Assembly: GCA_016787085.1 (NCBI GenBank)
Contig: JAEUVJ010000018.1
Coordinates: 1-64,000 of the forward strand
Source: Chitinophagaceae bacterium
GTDB lineage: Bacteria; Bacteroidota; Bacteroidia; Chitinophagales; Chitinophagaceae
DNA length: 64,000 nt
Reading direction: 5' to 3'
Each line of letters starts with the position of its first letter. Positions within the stretch are counted from its first letter, which is position 1. Made by a program: the position numbers and the translations under genes. Under the pieces are notes generated by a model. It was not told where the DNA came from, made no database searches, and was given only the letters and a program-made list of their open reading frames with translations. This document shows positions 31,715 to 38,404 of the stretch, piece after piece.

Positions 31715-32365
31715 TTACTCGATCAGATTATTCTTCACCGCAAAGAACACCAGGCCGGCCGTGTTCTTGCTGCCAAAGCGTTCCATCAGCCTGTCTTTGA
31801 TCGCTTCCACTGTCCTGGGACTGATCTCCATTTTTTTGGCTATTTCCTGCGCGGTAAATTCCATGCAGATAAAACGAAGTACATCTCTTTCTTTATCACT
31901 CAGGGTGATCTCGCTGTTAAGGGAAGGCACTACTTTCTGGCGGGAATGTGATTTTTTCAGCAGAATGCGGTTCACAAAGTTATTCAGGTAATAGCCTTTT
32001 TCATATACTTCCATGATGGCCCGGCGGATCTCCTGTGGTTCTGCATTCTTGAGCAGGTAGCCGTTGGCGCCATTTTCCATCAGGTGGTAAACAAAACGTT
32101 CATCCTCGTACATGCTTAACACAAGTACTTTAATATTTGGAAATTGTTTACTGACCAGTTTGGTGGCTTCGATGCCGTCTTTGCCCGGCATGCGCAGGTC
32201 CATCAGTATCACATCGGGGTGCGATTCAGCCAGACCGCCGATCAGGTCATCACCGTTCTCCGCTTCCTGAACAAACTTGATATTGGTAAAGGGCCGCAGG
32301 GAAAGGATAACCCCCTTGCGGAATATTTTGTGATCGTCAGCAATAGCCACTTTGATAATTCCCAT
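31715..32365 (-). CDS. NarL/LuxR-family response regulator (partner of adjacent kinase)
   Basis: A 216-residue regulator. The receiver domain (1-120) has Asp10-Asp11, phospho-acceptor Asp56 (ILMDLRMP) and the Lys of YLLKNAEP. The LuxR-type HTH (about 150-215) has TAQEIAKKMEISPRTVEAIKDRL. The start at 32365 is fixed by MGIIKVAIADDH; the longer frame runs into a stretch of GTTCC-like imperfect repeats. It has its own -7 element (32383-32390). It lies 127 bp downstream of the histidine kinase and is its likely target. Confidence 0.92.
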   Translation of the reverse strand: MGIIKVAIADDHKIFRKGVILSLRPFTNIKFVQEAENGDDLIGGLAESHPDVILMDLRMPGKDGIEATKLVSKQFPNIKVLVLSMYEDERFVYHLMENGANGYLLKNAEPQEIRRAIMEVYEKGYYLNNFVNRILLKKSHSRQKVVPSLNSEITLSDKERDVLRFICMEFTAQEIAKKMEISPRTVEAIKDRLMERFGSKNTAGLVFFAVKNNLIE

Positions 32366-32382
32366 AGTTATCAGATATCGCT

Positions 32383-32390
32383 CAAAGGTA
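32383..32390 (-). promoter_or_regulatory. -7 element of the response regulator
   Basis: The minus strand reads TACCTTTG, an exact TAnnTTTG, ending 17 bp before the ATG at 32365. The 32391-32480 stretch behind it is made of imperfect GTTCC/GTTCAAGAG repeats. Confidence 0.45.
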
Positions 32391-32492
32391 ATGGTTTTGT
32401 TAACGTTCAGGAAGTTCAAGAGTTCCAGAGGTTCCAAAAAGTTCCGGAGGTTTTTGCCAACTTGTGTAACTGGTGAACTGTTCAACTTCCTC

Positions 32493-33320
32493 TTACTGGT
32501 ACCGCTCGTCTTTTGGTAATTCGATCGTCACTTTATAATAGGTCTGTGAAATGTCTTTTTCGAACACTATGCTGCCCTGCACTACCCGGAGGCGGCTGCT
32601 GATGTTCTTCAGCCCGAGGCCTACATTGCTTTTGTTCAGTTTATCAAAATCGGCCTGTACGATGCCACGGCCGTCGTGATGGATACGCAGGTAGAATTTA
32701 TCGCCATGTACATTCTGCGTGAGATGGATAAAACTGGAATTACTGTGCTTAAGGATATTGTTTACCAGCTCCTGAACAATACGGAACACCACTAATTCCT
32801 TTTCCGGTTTCAGGCGGTCCTTGTATTCATGAAAACGGCTGCTGGCATTCATGCTGCCCGATCCGCTGATCTTCTGGAAAAGGTCGTTGATAGCGGACTC
32901 CAGCCCGAAATTCTTCAGGGTGGGCGGCATCAGGCTATGGCTGATATTGCGGATCAGCTGGATGGTATCGTCAATGATCTGCCGGGCCTGGAAAATAGAT
33001 TGTAACTGGGTAGCCTTATCCTGGTTCACGAGGTTTTCATTCAGGTACAGCCGGGCGGTGGCTAATAAAGGCCCTGCATCATCATGCAGGTCGGCAGCGA
33101 GACGCTGACGTTCTTCTTCCTGCAGTTTGATAGAGGCGGTGAGTAATATCTTTTGCTGCTCCTGCTCCATCTTCTGCAGGGTTTGCTGGTAGCGGGATAC
33201 CCTGCGCTGGTGAAAGATAATGAACAGCACCAGCCCGATAGTGAGAATAAGCATACCAATAGTGCCGATAAAGAGCACTAAAGATACGCTGGATGGGTTG
33301 GTGGTTTGGAGAAAGAACAT
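32493..33320 (-). CDS. Sensor histidine kinase, HisKA_3 (NarX-like) type
   Basis: A 275-residue kinase with a short N-terminal periplasmic part, one membrane helix (about 13-36), a coiled coil (about 40-72), and the HisKA_3 dimer domain with phospho-acceptor His79 (LAADLHDDAGPLL). The HATPase domain has FRIVQELVNNILKHS (N box) and DGRGI plus GLGLKNISSRL (G boxes). It has no evident extracellular sensor domain, so the membrane protein encoded just upstream could supply signal input. It pairs with the response regulator at 31715. Confidence 0.92.
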   Translation of the reverse strand: MFFLQTTNPSSVSLVLFIGTIGMLILTIGLVLFIIFHQRRVSRYQQTLQKMEQEQQKILLTASIKLQEEERQRLAADLHDDAGPLLATARLYLNENLVNQDKATQLQSIFQARQIIDDTIQLIRNISHSLMPPTLKNFGLESAINDLFQKISGSGSMNASSRFHEYKDRLKPEKELVVFRIVQELVNNILKHSNSSFIHLTQNVHGDKFYLRIHHDGRGIVQADFDKLNKSNVGLGLKNISSRLRVVQGSIVFEKDISQTYYKVTIELPKDERYQ

Positions 33321-33341: not shown

Positions 33342-33821
33342 TTAAACCATATCTAAGTAAGGGACTGAAGGTGTTTTTTGATTTATTGTTACATGGGGTG
33401 GATGTTTAACATATATAATTACAGCAACAGCTATAAAAATATTTTTAATTATATCTCCAAGAAAAGTTAGGTACCATATACTCTCAATGTGGGAAGAGCT
33501 TATCTCATCTGCCAGGATATTAAAGAAAAAGGTACTTCCAAGATATACTAGTATGCCCGTTATAAGCCAAAAGGCACTGCTAGTAAAAATGGGGACTGTT
33601 GAATTCTTAAAATACTGGTAAAAGAAATAGAATATGTAAATAAATAGTAGGATTGTTTCTAACCCGATTGGAATCGAATCCACCTTAATTATTTTAACAA
33701 AGGAGAAGAAAATGATTAAAAAGAGAGTATAGAGAACTGAACAGGTAAAAATGATTTTTCTAAATTTCTTATCTAAGATCGAATTCCATAGCACATATGA
33801 GAAGGTCAGGTATTCAAACAA
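33342..33821 (-). CDS. Multi-pass membrane protein upstream of kinase (start unclear)
   Basis: From the only standard start codon (TTG, 33819-33821) the protein has 159 residues and four or five hydrophobic segments. The frame stays open a further 71 codons to the stop at 34035, and the extra part is clearly membrane-like (LIYSYLLPLLFLILLF and SLIAVITLYLFTFFLLNYFF). No ATG, GTG or TTG lies in that extension. The real protein is therefore probably about 225 residues with about seven helices, starting at a non-standard codon such as ATA or ATT near 34020-34034, or the gene has lost its start. It is 21 bp from the kinase gene. I do not recognise a family. Confidence 0.6.
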   Translation of the reverse strand: MFEYLTFSYVLWNSILDKKFRKIIFTCSVLYTLFLIIFFSFVKIIKVDSIPIGLETILLFIYIFYFFYQYFKNSTVPIFTSSAFWLITGILVYLGSTFFFNILADEISSSHIESIWYLTFLGDIIKNIFIAVAVIIYVKHPPHVTINQKTPSVPYLDMV

Positions 33822-34093
33822 AGTATAAAAAAAGTAGTATCCCTTTTTTCCAATTATTATCTTAATATCGGAAAAGAAATAATTTAAAAGAAAAAATGTA
33901 AATAGGTAAAGGGTAATTACTGCAATAAGTGAAGTAATCTTAACTTTTTTAAATAGTAGTATTAAAAAAAGTAAAGGAAGGAGGTAGGAGTATATTAGAA
34001 TATCAGTAAAAAGCTTTTCTATAAAATTGGATATTTAGTCCAAATATAGAAAAGCTTTCCAGTAATTAAAATACTTAAAAAGAAGAAAACTGA

Positions 34094-34165
34094 TTAGTCC
34101 TCCCAAACAAATATGGAAATGTCATCCCAATCAATTCTTCTTTTAACTAAAACTACTTTTTTCAT
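34094..34165 (-). CDS. Tiny ORF, 23 residues, candidate peptide
   Basis: ATG to TAA encodes a 23-residue peptide: MKKVVLVKRR, then IDWDDISIFVWED. The N-terminal half is basic and the C-terminal half is acidic and aromatic, with Trp at 13 and 21. The 11 bases before the ATG and the first two codons are identical to those of another tiny ORF at 37001 (ACGTTACTGTTATGAAA in both). It precedes the membrane protein, histidine kinase and response regulator on the same strand, with 59 bp to the membrane-protein frame. I do not recognise it. A signalling peptide is one possibility; the shared leader is the main reason to take it seriously. Confidence 0.35.
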   Translation of the reverse strand: MKKVVLVKRRIDWDDISIFVWED

Positions 34166-34539
34166 AACAGTAACGTTTTTGAGCCTTGATCAAATCGATT
34201 TGTGGGATAAAAATTGCCTTTCCGGACGGCTATTTCCACGGCCTTAAATAGGACTTTAAAGTATGAAATCAATGAAATGCAGTGCAGTAGGGCGTTTTGT
34301 GGGATTTTACCTGAAAATATACCCCTTAAAAAAGAGTGTTTTTTCTAAGTAAAAAACGTATTTTTACGAAAACAAAATTGGGATATTTACCGGGAAAATT
34401 CACGGTAAAGAAGGGGTTGTTAACAGGTGTGGAAAGAAAGATGAGATAGGAAGTATGAAGTCTGAATTCAGCAATCTGAAGTTAGGTTGATGTATAAGAA
34501 CTGGATTTCCTTTTCTCTTTTAGAACCGGATATATTCTT

Positions 34540-34562
34540 AACCCCCCTTTAGGGGCTGGGGT
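34540..34562. repeat. GC-rich dispersed palindrome
   Basis: AACCCCCCTTTAGGGG followed by CTGGGGT; CCCC TTTA GGGG forms a short stem. It is like the repeat at 28785 and lies just before the structured element. Confidence 0.4.
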
Positions 34563-34570
34563 ATAAAAAG

Positions 34571-34738
34571 AAGTTGATTGACACCGGACTTTGCTATGGC
34601 CTTCATTGGATTTGGAAATCAGGTTTTGGACGGTTTTTCCCGCTTACACGGGAGCAGGATATTGGATGTTTGAGGGGCTGATCCTCGTCAATCAACTTGA
34701 GCCAAAAATATATGCACAGTCCGGTGTGCACAAGAGCA
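34571..34738 (+). ncRNA. Structured element, copy 1 (candidate RNA)
   Basis: A closing stem of 12 perfect pairs (AAGTTGATTGAC 34571-34582 with GTCAATCAACTT 34687-34698) encloses 104 nt. Inside are TGGACGGTTT, an extra stem CCCG/CGGG (34639-34652), TTGGATGT, and a stem GAGG/CCTC (34672-34686). Outside follow AAAAATATATGCACA, a stem TGCACA/TGTGCA and ACAAGAGCA. Copy 2 at 37146 keeps these blocks and their spacing, while its corresponding stem differs in sequence yet still pairs. That is the mark of a conserved RNA fold. The strand is inferred from the regulator gene 243 nt downstream. Confidence 0.45.
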
Positions 34739-34981
34739 GTAATGCGTAGTGTTTGGCACATGGTTTTTACGGAAGAGAAGGTAAATTTTCAGCGGCGGAT
34801 ATGAAACAACAGACCTTGGCGGCTGAAGCCGGATTTCCTGATAAAGATCAATGAAGCGCTTACAGAAATGCAGAGAATAACCCCTAAAAAAAACTACTTT
34901 TGGCCTCGCAAAACTACGTATCGTATTTACTGCCACCGGCAGATCACATAAAATAACCGTAAACCTAAACCTGCTTAATAC

Positions 34982-35638
34982 ATGAATGACCAGCAGATCA
35001 AAGTAGCGATTGCCGACGATCATAAGATCTTTCGTGATGGAATCCGTATGGCCCTGAGGGATAAAGAGTACCTGAAAATATTATGGGAAGCCGAGGACGG
35101 AAAAGACCTGATGCATAAACTGAAGCTGAAACTTCCCGATGTGATCCTGATGGATATCCGCATGCCCGAGATAGACGGCATCAATGCCATCAGCATGATC
35201 CGCAAGGAATACGAGGAGCTTAAGATCATTGTACTTACTATGTATGATGACCAGGAGATGATCACCAAAATGATGGAGATGGGCGCCAATGCCTATTTGA
35301 CCAAGACCACTGACCCCGAAGAGATCTACCAGGCCATCCTTACCTGTATGAACGATGATTTCTACTTCAATGAATTGGTCAATAAGGCGGTTTTGCTGAA
35401 ACTGCAGCATAAGAAAACGGTCAGGCAGTTCTATCCCAATCCCGTCAAGCTGTCGGAAAAGGAACTGCGTATCCTGAAACTGATCGCCGAAGACAAGACC
35501 ACGGAAGAGATTTCCAAAGAGGTTTTTCTGAGCCCCCGCACCATCGAGACCATCCGCCAGAACATGAAACAAAAAGTAGGGGCAAAGACCATCGCCGGGC
35601 TGGTGATGTATGCAATGCGTAACAAACTGCTGGAATAA
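34982..35638 (+). CDS. Orphan NarL/LuxR-family response regulator
   Basis: A 218-residue regulator with a receiver domain (Asp12-Asp13, phospho-acceptor Asp58 in ILMDIRMP, Lys in YLTKTTDPEE). A LuxR HTH is at about 150-217, with TTEEISKEVFLSPRTIETIRQNM. No kinase gene is adjacent on this strand; the closest is at 32493, facing the other way. It is a paralogue of the regulators at 31715 and 37545. Its upstream region carries a TACGTAT/GTATTTACTGCC block and, 243 nt away, the structured element. It is followed 58 bp later by a methyltransferase gene. Confidence 0.92.
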   Translation: MNDQQIKVAIADDHKIFRDGIRMALRDKEYLKILWEAEDGKDLMHKLKLKLPDVILMDIRMPEIDGINAISMIRKEYEELKIIVLTMYDDQEMITKMMEMGANAYLTKTTDPEEIYQAILTCMNDDFYFNELVNKAVLLKLQHKKTVRQFYPNPVKLSEKELRILKLIAEDKTTEEISKEVFLSPRTIETIRQNMKQKVGAKTIAGLVMYAMRNKLLE

Positions 35639-35696
35639 ACCCCGGATTTTCGCTTCAGACAAAGCTTTCAATATCTATTCTTACTTTGATTGATCA

Positions 35697-36443
35697 ATGA
35701 GTAATATCAACGACACTTATTTTGACGGCCATTATAAGGATATATGGCGTACGATGATCCCCGCGGAGCTGACCGTCAAAGAAGTGGACTTCATGCTTTC
35801 ATATTTTTCGCTCGGACCCGGCAGTAAAGTCCTCGACCTGATGTGTGGTTATGGCCGTCATGCTATTGCCCTGGCACAAAAAGGAATTGCTGTAACTGCT
35901 GTTGATAATCTCGATGAATATATCCGGGAAATAAAAGAAGTTGTTATAAAGGAATCCCTGCCTGTAGAAGTGGTACAGCAAGATGCGATCCGATTCACAA
36001 GTACTGTACAATACGACCTGGCCTTATGCATGGGTAACAGCCTGAATTTTTTCAATGCAGAAGATGCTTCTTTGTTTTTGCATAATACCTGTTCCATGCT
36101 GAAGCCCGGAGGCTGCCTGTTGATCAATAGCTGGTCATTAACGGAGATCGCTGTTAAGAGCTTTACGCCCAGATCATGGAGCGAAATAGGTAACCTGAAG
36201 TTCCTTTCTGCCTGCGAATATCTTTTTCATCCTACCAGGATGGAGTTTACTTCTACCATCCTGTCGCCTGATGGAAAGACAGAGGTGAAGAATGGGATTG
36301 ATTATATTTATTCTGTTTCGGAAATGGAAACAATGCTGAATAAGGCCGGGTTTAAGATGAAAGAGATTTACAGTATCCCGGGCCGTAAAAAATTTACTTT
36401 AGGCGAACCGAGGGCTTACATTGTAGCGGAGAAGCTAAGTTGA
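35697..36443 (+). CDS. Class I SAM-dependent methyltransferase
   Basis: A 248-residue methyltransferase with motif I VLDLMCGYGRHAIALAQKG (about 40-58), the acidic end of strand 2 (VTAVDNLDEYI), QQDAIRF, and the post-II block DLALCMGNSLNFF. A typical C-terminal half has MLKPGGCLLINSW and ends with substrate-cover strands. The substrate is not identifiable. It probably shares a transcript with the regulator upstream. Confidence 0.82.
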   Translation: MSNINDTYFDGHYKDIWRTMIPAELTVKEVDFMLSYFSLGPGSKVLDLMCGYGRHAIALAQKGIAVTAVDNLDEYIREIKEVVIKESLPVEVVQQDAIRFTSTVQYDLALCMGNSLNFFNAEDASLFLHNTCSMLKPGGCLLINSWSLTEIAVKSFTPRSWSEIGNLKFLSACEYLFHPTRMEFTSTILSPDGKTEVKNGIDYIYSVSEMETMLNKAGFKMKEIYSIPGRKKFTLGEPRAYIVAEKLS

Positions 36444-36456
36444 GTTTACTAACTAT

Positions 36457-36684
36457 TTATAAAAAATCATTCTCCCTTCCTTTAAGATATCCTTCTTCCT
36501 GTTTCGGAATATTCCATTTATCAAAAGGTAGAGGATCGGGATCCGGCTTTGTTTCTTTTTTAGGCAGAAATCTATTTTGGGCAAGTATAACCCGACGGGT
36601 TTGCTTTTTTGCTGCAGGGAGAACTGGTTCGTCAGCAGCCACAGTTAAAGGGGAAACGGGCAATCGTTTTTTAGCAACTAACAT
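36457..36684 (-). CDS. Small Lys/Pro-rich protein, hypothetical
   Basis: A 75-residue frame starting MLVAKKRLPVSPLTVAADE. It is Lys-, Pro- and Glu-rich without hydrophobic segments (PKKETKPDPDPLPFDKWNIP). A purine-rich AGGAAAAA lies about 15 bp before the ATG. It converges on the methyltransferase gene. The opposite strand also has an open frame of 90 codons, but its composition is less protein-like. I do not recognise it; it may be a chance ORF. Confidence 0.3.
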   Translation of the reverse strand: MLVAKKRLPVSPLTVAADEPVLPAAKKQTRRVILAQNRFLPKKETKPDPDPLPFDKWNIPKQEEGYLKGRENDFL

Positions 36685-36956
36685 AGGCCGGTTTTTCCTG
36701 GTTCAGATTTGATTTGGCTGGCAAATTCACCTTAAGTTATTACTTCAATATGAACACAGCATTATTTTATTAAGAATGTTATGTACAGGATATTCCCACC
36801 TCCTGCCTGCCCGGTATCACAATGGTTAATTACAGGACTGGAAGGAGGGCATAAAAACAATGCAGCCTGCCTCATCCTTCGACCCCACCCAGGTCTTTGT
36901 ATGTGGTAAGCTGCATGTTGTCCGGCGTCGTAGCCTTTCGCCTTTGTCCCTAAACA

Positions 36957-36990
36957 AAAAAAGCCCCACCATAAATAGGGCGGAGGCTTA
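36957..36990 (-). terminator. Terminator-like hairpin reading leftward
   Basis: On the minus strand AAGCCTCCGCCC pairs imperfectly with GGTGGGGCTT across a TATTTAT loop and is followed by a seven-T run. It could end a minus-strand transcript coming from the right. On the plus strand it is the hairpin just before the tiny ORF at 37001. Confidence 0.4.
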
Positions 36991-37000
36991 CGTTACTGTT

Positions 37001-37060
37001 ATGAAAGAAAAATTTTATCTCTGGGTCGGTAATTTCAAAGGAACAAGGCTTAACGGTTAA
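37001..37060 (+). CDS. Tiny ORF, 19 residues, candidate peptide
   Basis: ATG to TAA encodes MKEKFYLWVG followed by NFKGTRLNG. It is basic and aromatic with a Gly-rich end. The 11 bases before the ATG and the first two codons are the same as at the 23-codon ORF 34094-34165 (ACGTTACTGTTATGAAA), although the rest differs. It lies 85 bp before the second structured element and on the same strand as the regulator at 37545. Coding is not proven. Confidence 0.3.
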   Translation: MKEKFYLWVGNFKGTRLNG

Positions 37061-37145
37061 TCATCAACAAGGGCCGGTCATTAGGTTTAAGTTCTTCATA
37101 CGATCCCCGGATTTAAAAAACGGTTGCCAGGAAAAGAAAAAAGAG

Positions 37146-37305
37146 AAAGTTGATTGGGTGCGGAGAGTGTCGTCTGGTTTTTCAAGGGAATTGGAAATTA
37201 TTTTCTGGACGGTTTGGACATTGGATGTGTAGGATAAACGAGTCATCCTTAGCAATCAACTTTCTGGAGCAAAAATATATGCACACCCCTCTGTGGACAA
37301 GAGCA
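37146..37305 (+). ncRNA. Structured element, copy 2 (candidate RNA)
   Basis: The closing stem AAAGTTGATTG (37146-37156) / CAATCAACTTT (37253-37263) encloses 96 nt. It contains TGGACGGTTT, GGACATTGGATGT and a stem AGGAT/ATCCT (37231-37249). Then AAAAATATATGCACA (37271-37285), exactly 11 nt, and ACAAGAGCA (37297-37305), the same block order and 11-nt spacing as copy 1. The extra CCCG/CGGG stem of copy 1 is missing here. It ends 239 nt before the regulator's ATG; copy 1 ends 243 nt before its regulator. Confidence 0.45.
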
Positions 37306-37544
37306 TTACTGCCCGATTTCTTTTATTCGGTATTTACTGCCTGCTACGTATTTCTTCACTCCGGTATGTGCGTAGAAGTTCTTTTTTTATTGAGAAACTC
37401 TTACCAAAGAGTCAGCGGTACTTTCCGCAAAAGTGAAATCAAGTACTTCTACTATGGGATATATAACAGGATTTTTTCAATTTGCATCCGCAACAAACAC
37501 TAACGAACAATTTAAAACCACCCGTAATACCAATATCAAACCCC

Positions 37545-38219
37545 ATGAAAAATCCCGAAACCAACACTGTTATTAAAGTAGCTATTGCAGACGATCACAC
37601 TCTCTTCCGTACCGGCGTTAAAACATCCCTTTCCAGCCGCAAAGACATTCAAATGGTAGCTGAAGCCGAGAACGGTATGCAGTTGCTGAACCTTTTGCGT
37701 CATATCCAGCCGGATGTAGTGTTGCTGGATATACAGATGCCGATCATGGATGGACTGGCTACATTGCCGGAGATCAAAAAGCTGTATCCCAATGTAAAAG
37801 TGATCATGCTGTCCATGCACAATGACCATTCGGTCATTTCCCGTATGATGGAAATAGGCGCCAATTCCTACCTGACCAAAGAATCAGGTTCGGAAATGAT
37901 CTATGAAGCCATCCGCGGGGTGTTTGAGCAGGATTTCTACTTCAACGATCTTACCAACAAAGCGTTGCTGAGCGGCCTTCGTACCAAGCGTACAGTAGAA
38001 TCATCAGCTCCTGCCGATGTGCAGCTCACTGACAAAGAGATCACCATCCTGAAACTGATGTGTGACGAGAAAAGCACCAAGGAAATAGCTGATATCGTGG
38101 ACCTGAGCCCCCGTACGGTGGAAGCGATCCGCGATAAGCTCAAAACAAAGACCGGTACCAAATCTATGGCGGGCCTTGTCATGTATGCTGTAAAAGCAGG
38201 CTTGGTTGAAAGCCATTAA
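37545..38219 (+). CDS. Orphan NarL/LuxR-family response regulator
   Basis: A 224-residue regulator with a receiver domain (Asp16-Asp17, phospho-acceptor Asp62 in LLDIQMP, Lys in YLTKESGSE). A LuxR HTH follows, with STKEIADIVDLSPRTVEAIRDKL. ATG at 37545 (MKNPETN) is chosen because the longer TTG frame has no receiver-like sequence. No kinase gene is adjacent. It is a paralogue of the regulator at 34982 and shares its upstream structured element. A CACCGGT/ACCGGTG hairpin lies 27 bp after the stop. Confidence 0.92.
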   Translation: MKNPETNTVIKVAIADDHTLFRTGVKTSLSSRKDIQMVAEAENGMQLLNLLRHIQPDVVLLDIQMPIMDGLATLPEIKKLYPNVKVIMLSMHNDHSVISRMMEIGANSYLTKESGSEMIYEAIRGVFEQDFYFNDLTNKALLSGLRTKRTVESSAPADVQLTDKEITILKLMCDEKSTKEIADIVDLSPRTVEAIRDKLKTKTGTKSMAGLVMYAVKAGLVESH

Positions 38220-38368
38220 TAGTCCGGATCTGCCCGTTTGCCCATACACCGGTTGGGAGACCGGTGAGAAGTATGTGTATGCGTCCGTCCAGGGTGATCT
38301 GTTACAAATAAGTATCGTTCGTGAATTGATATAGGTAATTATCGCCGTTACTAACCCAACAGAATACA

Positions 38369-38404
38369 ATGCCATCCCGCCAGAGGCGGGATGGCATTTT
38401 TATT
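38369..38404 (+). terminator. Terminator between regulator and class IV aminotransferase
   Basis: AATGCCATCCCGCC AGA GGCGGGATGGCATT is a perfect 14-bp stem followed by TTTATTTT. Confidence 0.85.

What the first reader, a model, noticed from the sequence alone, without database searches (positions are those of the whole stretch)
34094..38219. Two units of tiny ORF, structured element and orphan NarL-type regulator
Two non-coding stretches near 34.0-35.0 and 36.7-37.5 kb each contain a tiny ORF, a structured element of about 160 nt and, about 240 nt further on, a response regulator without a kinase gene beside it. In the second unit all three lie in one direction (37001, 37146, 37545). In the first, the tiny ORF faces away and leads into a membrane protein, histidine kinase and third regulator. 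Duplicated non-coding parts kept with duplicated regulators suggest one functional module, perhaps a peptide- or RNA-controlled circuit. I know of no described system with this layout.
Basis: partly seen in the sequence, partly recalled or inferred. Interest (0 to 1): 0.82.

Follow-up and report, generated by a model that had tools for sequence, protein, structure and literature searches.

The report
Regulator-paired small RNAs facing a peptide operon
Next to two signalling-regulator genes of a Chitinophagaceae bacterium lie two copies of a predicted small-RNA gene family shared by many relatives; the regulators likely switch these RNAs on, and the predicted end of one RNA is perfectly antisense to the start of a 23-codon peptide gene, so it would likely silence a peptide, membrane-protein and kinase operon in a feedback loop.

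Summary
The two non-coding units are real but read differently. The "structured element" is a predicted small-RNA gene on the MINUS strand, pointing away from each orphan regulator, with a fixed promoter (TTG-N20-TAttTTTG), a conserved 10-bp stem and repeated UCCA in the loop. No Rfam match; 51 of 147 family genomes hold 1-10 copies (this one 4). Of 91 inspected copies, 34 lie divergent from an orthologue of a window regulator; of the other 57, 45 carry GTA-N4-TAC dyads upstream (1.8 expected), as do 31 of 69 RR2 promoters (2.0 expected). This points to regulator-controlled small RNAs. The unit-2 tiny ORF is not a gene; its DNA is the complement of the RNA's 3' end. The unit-1 tiny ORF is real (15-29 aa in 26 genomes) and precedes a hypervariable membrane protein and a conserved kinase. 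RNA-2's predicted 3' end matches its start codon over 17 nt; 19 of 394 genomes hold both exact partners. In 25 genomes read at both loci, 12 have seed and site, 13 neither (only one of these 13 has a recognised peptide gene). Seed and site do not covary. Transcription, pairing and signalling are untested.

The parts
37133..37268 (-). small RNA 2 (sRNA2), conserved 5' domain: 10-bp closing stem AAGUUGAUUG/CAAUCAACUU around a loop with repeated UCCA
   Evidence: CM R1 108 bits; stem pair counts; UCCA enrichment
37270..37300 (-). sRNA2 core promoter TTG-N20-TATTTTTG
   Evidence: consensus of Bacteroidota promoters recalled
37301..37337 (-). upstream promoter element GTAAATACCGAA...AAAT..GGGCA..TGC
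   Evidence: conserved columns; 0-mismatch match 37270-37337
36955..37132 (-). sRNA2 3' extension (predicted) up to the intrinsic terminator
   Evidence: conserved blocks in Terrimonas-like relatives; boundaries inferred
36990..37006 (-). sRNA2 seed UUUCAUAACAGUAACGU, 17 nt perfectly complementary to the tiny-ORF-1 start region
   Evidence: (I1); unpaired in the centroid fold
36963..36985 (-). intrinsic terminator of sRNA2 (pattern match)
   Evidence: ORF lengths 5-50 in 26 loci; ACG instead of ATG in L011
34557..34704 (-). small RNA 1 (sRNA1), same family
   Evidence: CM R1 96.7 bits
34703..34733 (-). sRNA1 core promoter
   Evidence: 1 mismatch to the long pattern
34094..34165 (-). tiny ORF 1, 23-aa peptide MKKVVLVKRRIDWDDISIFVWED
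   Evidence: 26 genomes with 15-29 aa, alignment
34160..34176 (-). ACGTTACTGTTATGAAA, predicted sRNA2 target site over the start codon of tiny ORF 1
33342..34034 (-). hypervariable membrane protein, eight predicted helices (start codon uncertain)
   Evidence: no Pfam/NCBIfam hit; AlphaFold pLDDT 90; 25-60% identity among homologues
32493..33320 (-). histidine kinase (HisKA_3, HATPase_c)
   Evidence: 73-96% identity where the membrane protein is 25-60%
31715..32485 (-). third response regulator RR3
34982..35638 (+). response regulator RR1
35697..36443 (+). methyltransferase gene between the two units
37545..38219 (+). response regulator RR2
37443..37452 (.). GTACTTCTAC, dyad of the GTA-N4-TAC type upstream of RR2

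Best explanation
The two elements are two copies of a multi-copy family of predicted small-RNA genes whose promoters point away from the neighbouring NarL/GacA-like regulator genes; the regulators likely activate them, and the RNA of unit 2 would base-pair with the start codon of the 23-codon peptide gene of unit 1 and so likely repress the peptide, membrane-protein, kinase and regulator operon. Shown by sequence: the conserved family, its promoter, its copies inside and outside regulator loci, the dyad shared by RR2 promoters and RNA promoters, the conserved peptide gene, and the complementarity of at least 15 nt kept in relatives. Inferred: that the RNAs are made; that RR1/RR2 bind the dyad; that sRNA2 runs to the terminator at 36963-36985; that pairing blocks translation; that the loop's repeated UCCA motifs are further pairing sites or bind an RNA-binding protein; that the peptide acts on the membrane protein and the kinase feeds RR1/RR2. 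Net picture: a two-component island whose output RNAs feed back on its own input operon.
For: RNA gene: 46 distinct copies with an invariant CCGUCC in the loop and nearly invariant stem arms; promoter in 81 of 92 CM hits, and in 47 of the 57 copies away from RR1/RR2 (40 strict, 7 by a looser branch), which were found by the CM and not by promoter; stem 99.7% paired, 5 of 10 pairs with double changes, 0 of 500 shuffles reach this. Regulator link: 34 of 91 copies divergent from RR1/RR2 orthologues (L172_3114 dropped); GTA-N4-TAC in 45 of 57 unlinked RNA promoters (shuffled mean 1.8), mostly near -126, -103 and -80, and in 31 of 69 RR2 promoters (mean 2.0); RR2 and RNA co-occur in 49 of 147 genomes, RNA alone in 2, RR2 alone in 7. 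Antisense: 17-nt perfect match; the 15-mer occurs twice in this genome; 19 of 394 genomes hold both an RNA-antisense copy and a peptide-start copy; of 25 genomes read at both loci (39 tabulated), 12 have both, 13 neither, 0 one only. Peptide gene: 15-29 aa in 26 genomes against 5-50 for unit 2.
Against: No covariation of seed and site: pairing is as long across genomes as within them (18.1 against 18.3 nt). Of the 13 genomes with neither, a peptide gene of this type was recognised only in G088, so the concordance is largely one of lineages. In RR-linked copies the exact dyad is found in only 6 of 34 (mean 1.2); GTA-N2-TAC is also raised, 8 of 69 at RR2 promoters and 4 of 34 linked. All counts ignore shared ancestry. 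Codon positions of differences in the peptide gene (18, 17, 26 over 4 pairs) show only a weak third-position excess. A T-run right after the closing stem could end the RNA before the seed. The whole 320-nt RNA folds no better than shuffles (z 0.24); the plus strand of element 2 folds as well as the minus strand. No transcript data.
Confidence: 0.5

Rival explanations
1. The RNA family is real and regulator-controlled, but the shared 15-mer is a binding site of a DNA- or RNA-binding protein present at both loci, not an antisense pair.
For: The core is invariant and its flanks do not covary; both copies would be bound alike.
Against: The two copies are in opposite sense relative to the predicted transcripts: one over a start codon, one just before an RNA terminator on the complementary strand. 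In G131 the seed differs by one base that still allows a G-U pair while the start codon stays ATG (a single case).
Confidence: 0.25
2. The RNA works as a protein sponge: the repeated UCCA motifs in the closed loop titrate an RNA-binding protein, as GGA motifs do in Rsm/Csr RNAs; the antisense match is a side branch of one paralogue.
For: UCCA 3.8 per loop against 1.2 in shuffles, UCCAA 2.6 against 0.6, over 86 of 92 loops; many copies per genome; the seed was seen in a minority of genomes (15-mer in 36 of 394).
Against: No protein identified; CsrA not found in this genome; GGA not enriched.
Confidence: 0.3
3. One reading: two peptide-element-regulator units, each encoding a tiny peptide.
For: Both tiny ORFs share GTTACTGTTATGAAA at the start.
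Against: The unit-2 ORF is 5-50 codons long with early stops and once lacks the start codon; DNA differences fall on all codon positions about alike (86, 103, 107).
Confidence: 0.04
4. The element is a cis-regulatory leader or a repeat without function.
For: It lies upstream of regulator genes; copies are dispersed; the plus strand of element 2 folds well (z -4.2).
Against: The promoter faces away from the regulator; 57 of 91 copies have no RR1/RR2 neighbour, and most of them keep the promoter.
Confidence: 0.05

Closest known systems
Gac/Rsm (GacA-controlled RsmX/Y/Z small RNAs, Pseudomonas)
   Same: LuxR-type response regulator, several small-RNA genes, palindromic element upstream of each, repeated short motif in the RNA (passages of PMC2375449)
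   Different: Repeat is UCCA, not GGA; no CsrA/RsmA found; some RNAs sit back to back with the regulators; dyad GTA-N4-TAC; regulators score far below the GacA cut-off
FopS/GibS small RNAs of Bacteroides thetaiotaomicron
   Same: Multi-copy small-RNA family of Bacteroidota with own promoters; seed pairs near a start codon; the printed R1' consensus also holds UUUCAUA (passages of PMC11697453)
   Different: 65-70 nt, 5' seed, targets SusC mRNAs; no regulator-linked copies mentioned in the passages read; no alignment of the two families was run
Peptide quorum-sensing cassettes such as agr or com (recalled)
   Same: Short variable peptide gene beside a variable membrane protein and a conserved kinase/regulator pair
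   Different: No export or processing gene recognised in the operon; membrane protein and kinase are separate proteins; peptide never shown to leave the cell
6S RNA / 6S-Flavo (RF01685)
   Same: Small RNA closed by a terminal stem, in Bacteroidota
   Different: No Rfam match at gathering threshold; large open loop, several copies per genome

Membership tests
Gac/Rsm system | regulator of the UvrY/SirA/GacA family | tested here: not met
   RR1 127.5 and RR2 121.5 bits against a cut-off of 280; MctR scores higher (146.6, 145.8 against 300)
Gac/Rsm system | CsrA/RsmA protein in the genome | tested here: not met
   PF02599: 0 matches in this genome, 98% complete; found in 3 of 14 controls
Gac/Rsm system | multiple unpaired GGA motifs | tested here: not met
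   0.55 per loop against 0.67 shuffled
Gac/Rsm system | several small RNAs with a palindromic upstream element | tested here: met
   GTA-N4-TAC in 45 of 57 unlinked copies, 6 of 34 linked; binding by the regulator not tested
FopS/GibS | 65-70 nt RNA | tested here: not met
   closed 5' domain alone is 116 and 128 nt in the window
FopS/GibS | association with RbpB | not testable with these tools
   needs CLIP or a binding assay
6S RNA | match to Rfam 6S models | tested here: not met
   no match at gathering threshold over the window or 9 relative loci
peptide quorum sensing | variable peptide next to a variable membrane protein | tested here: met
   membrane protein 25-60% while kinase 73-96% identical; of the peptide only M1, K2 and a Trp are invariant or nearly so among 30
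peptide quorum sensing | peptide exported and sensed outside | not tested
   no experiment; no export gene recognised in the operon
peptide quorum sensing | membrane protein of a known receptor fold | tested here: inconclusive

The most novel reading that the evidence does not exclude
A peptide-signalling circuit of Bacteroidota closed by RNA: a tiny Trp-and-acid-tailed peptide and a fast-evolving multi-helix membrane receptor drive a kinase and three LuxR-type regulators, the regulators switch on a dispersed family of UCCA-repeat small RNAs, and one of these RNAs, encoded back to back with a regulator, shuts off the peptide's own start codon.
Probability: 0.3. Interest if true: 0.88.

Novelty: new variant of a known kind. 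Interest (0 to 1): 0.74.

Why it matters
Regulator-controlled small-RNA families of the Rsm or Qrr type are known mainly from Proteobacteria (recalled), and this genome lacks CsrA. A Chitinophagaceae family with a shared operator-like dyad, a repeated loop motif and one defined, testable mRNA partner would give this large, little-studied group a model two-component-to-RNA circuit, and possibly a peptide-sensing system.

Tried and rejected
Rfam gave nothing at gathering threshold for the window or 9 relative loci, and one chance-level miRNA match elsewhere in 33.4-38.5 kb at E up to 5, so 6S, riboswitch and leader families were dropped. Reading the element on the plus strand as a regulator leader was dropped because of the minus-strand promoter. 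The dyad TGCACA-N6-TGTGCA between the -33 and -7 boxes was first taken for the regulator's operator; it is absent or different in other genera and was dropped for GTA-N4-TAC. The 16-mer holding that dyad's right half also hit G013, where the CM finds no RNA. The motif GTTACTGTTATGAAA was considered as terminal repeat of a mobile element and dropped: its two copies can lie 26 kb apart (G473) and serve different transcripts. Covariation of seed and site was looked for and not found. Complementarity between the RNAs and the operon leader in genera without the seed gave 9-13 nt scattered matches. From I left out of the 68-locus counts the distant regulators (L073, L075-L084) and a fragment (L068). 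The weak second hit L172_3114 was dropped (92 to 91). Of the 57 places of the 15-mer, six (G131:C26, G164, G262, G297, G412, G483) look like chance matches in other genes. Of the 145 hits, 91 lay in the regions that I fetched; the rest were not inspected for neighbours. Order level: 119 genomes, 6 with hits, one of them outside the family and weak (G194, E 0.0018). Paper searches listed no description of this RNA family; they cover open-licence PMC papers alone and were searched by words. Papers: PMC11697453, PMC2375449, PMC2864571 and PMC9723704 seen as passages; all others as search listings. Recalled, from no call: Bacteroidota promoter consensus, DnaA box, Qrr, agr/com. Gene names given to neighbours in L131-L133 are my reading of the translations, without a family search. 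On checking, I lowered the antisense odds from 0.6 to 0.55 and the whole from 0.55 to 0.5, because 12 of the 13 'neither' genomes have no recognised peptide gene.
Full report
WHAT IS THERE. The window lies in a 5.0-Mb genome (G000) whose nearest relatives with named records are Chitinophagaceae, Terrimonas among them. Between 31.7 and 38.2 kb it holds, from left to right: RR3, kinase, membrane protein and tiny ORF 1 (all minus), sRNA1 (minus), RR1 and a methyltransferase (plus), sRNA2 (minus), RR2 (plus). Pfam calls the regulators Response_reg + GerE and the kinase HisKA_3 + HATPase_c.

THE ELEMENT IS A PREDICTED SMALL-RNA GENE ON THE OTHER STRAND. Both copies have, immediately outside the closing stem and towards the regulator, TTG-N20-TATTTTTG on the minus strand, the Bacteroidota promoter type (recalled). 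A promoter-plus-stem pattern in the loci then held gave 46 distinct copies; CCGUCC is invariant, the stem arms nearly so, and UCCAAUGUCC is common. A covariance model (R1), which contains no promoter, finds four copies in this genome and copies in 51 of 147 family genomes, 145 places in all, up to ten per genome (E <= 0.01). A second model (R2) gives again 51 of 147 (E <= 0.001), with G112 in and G173 out. At order level 6 of 119 genomes have hits, one of them outside the family and weak. Of 92 hits in 80 fetched regions, 81 have a matching promoter, 74 in the strict TTG-N18-21-TAnnTTTG form and 7 by a looser branch; for the 57 away from RR1/RR2 it is 47 (40 strict). The closing stem is paired in 99.7% of cells, five of ten pairs show double changes, 0 of 500 shuffles reach this, and slid versions fall to 1.5-54%; most pairs hardly vary, so this supports a stem of nearly fixed sequence. 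Single-sequence folds give z -3.1 and -3.7 on the minus strand and -4.2 and -2.0 on the plus strand, so folding alone does not choose the strand. The loop is rich in UCCA (3.8 against 1.2 per loop in shuffles, 86 loops) and not in GGA. Rfam has no match at gathering threshold.

LINK TO THE REGULATORS. Among 68 loci with an RR2 homologue (of 80), the RNA is divergent from RR2 in 33. Of 91 inspected CM hits, 34 lie divergent from an RR1 or RR2 orthologue and 57 elsewhere, for example beside what read as a cysteine-synthase/CBS gene or a short-chain dehydrogenase gene (own-genome loci L131, L132). The promoters share a long consensus, sharper in linked copies: GTAAAT at -60, AAA at -42, GCA-N4-TGCTCTTG at -35 to -21, counted from the T of TAttTTTG. 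That pattern with up to two mismatches gave 37 places over 29 genomes against 3 for the reversed pattern; in this genome it found the two window copies and missed the two outlying ones. Further upstream, 45 of 57 unlinked copies hold GTA-N4-TAC (shuffled mean 1.8, largest 6), mostly near -126, -103 and -80; spacings of 2, 3, 5 and 6 give 1 or 2. Linked copies hold it in 6 of 34 (mean 1.2), with degenerate sites near -80. Upstream of RR2 it is found in 31 of 69 genes (mean 2.0), often near -100 from the start codon; there GTA-N2-TAC is also raised (8 of 69). The exact form CGTA-N4-TACG is found in 5 of the 35 RR2 loci without a divergent RNA. The simplest reading is an operator of the RR2 family shared by the regulator's own promoter and the RNA genes. 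RR2 orthologues (E <= 1e-70) and the RNA co-occur in 49 of 147 genomes, RNA alone in 2 (G077, G110), RR2 alone in 7, neither in 89 (Fisher p 8e-29, shared ancestry not corrected). This includes G010 and G132, where none of the RNA copies found lies beside RR2.

ANTISENSE MATCH. Read on its own strand, the predicted 3' end of sRNA2 is ..CUUUCAUAACAGUAACG.., followed by an intrinsic-terminator pattern. This is the exact complement of the tiny-ORF-1 leader and start codon, 17 nt in the window. The 15-mer occurs in 36 of 394 family genomes at 57 places, against 14 places for the reversed control, and twice in this genome. In 19 of the 394 genomes one exact copy is a peptide start and another the antisense of an RNA 3' end, on separate contigs in some and 26 kb apart in G473. 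Four more (G003, G004, G018, G113) have one member with a single mismatch, and G131 has a seed with a possible G-U pair. In a table of 39 genomes, 25 could be read at both loci: 12 have seed and site within one mismatch, 13 have neither, none has one alone. Of those 13, only G088 has a recognised peptide gene of this type, and it lacks both seed and site; the other 12 say little. Pairing is no better within than across genomes, 18.3 against 18.1 nt over 21 pairs, so conservation, not covariation, carries the argument. The seed is unpaired in the centroid fold; the whole RNA folds no better than shuffles.

HOW IT LIKELY WORKS. RR1/RR2, on phosphorylation, would bind GTA-N4-TAC and activate the RNA genes and RR2 itself. 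sRNA2 would cover the start codon of the peptide mRNA and lower expression of the peptide, membrane protein, kinase and RR3, giving negative feedback. The UCCA loop, common to the family, would serve the wider function, by pairing or by binding a protein. The variable peptide plus variable membrane protein plus conserved kinase suggests ligand sensing. Every step in this paragraph is inferred.

COMPARISON. It works like Gac/Rsm (regulator to several small RNAs with a repeated motif) but fails three membership tests: regulator score, CsrA, GGA. It resembles FopS in being a multi-copy family with a UUUCAUA-type seed over a start codon, yet length and layout differ.

VERDICT. Small-RNA family: about 0.93 likely. 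Control by RR1/RR2: about 0.65. Antisense action on the peptide operon: about 0.55. Peptide signalling: about 0.35.

Noticed in passing
L037, L038, L042 (sRNA2 promoters), window 34703-34733 and 37270-37300: Between the -33 and -7 boxes many promoters hold TTGTNCACA/TTATCCACA repeats that look like DnaA boxes (consensus recalled); other genera lack them. Possible link to replication or growth phase.
   Followed up: no
L131 3032-3194 and L132 3016-3143 (own genome C8, C74): Two further RNA copies outside regulator loci; neighbours of similar lengths and directions recur in other genomes.
   Followed up: partly
L133, L134 (G074): A genome with ten RNA copies, some in clusters; by eye one cluster lies near a small RRM-type RNA-binding protein and a cold-shock-like gene.
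   Followed up: no
window 33342-34034: The membrane protein's conserved frame starts at about 34034 without an ATG start there; the start codon is unclear.
   Followed up: no
sRNA2 3' region, window about 37108-37124, and the same place in L021, L042, L110, L115: A second conserved block CCGTTTTTAAATCC follows the first domain in several genera, hinting that the transcript runs past the first T-run.
   Followed up: no
upstream of tiny ORF 1, window about 34190-34217: A species-variable palindrome (AAATCGATTT, GAATCGATTC, GGAATATTCC) after a conserved CAATTTTTAC-like stretch; perhaps the operon's promoter or operator.
   Followed up: no
L152, L155, L158, L194 between RNA1 and the membrane protein: In some genomes of other genera an extra ORF containing IGEEIG lies before the membrane protein.
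   Followed up: no
window 38368-38398: Perfect 14-bp hairpin just after RR2, terminator-like on the minus strand.
   Followed up: no
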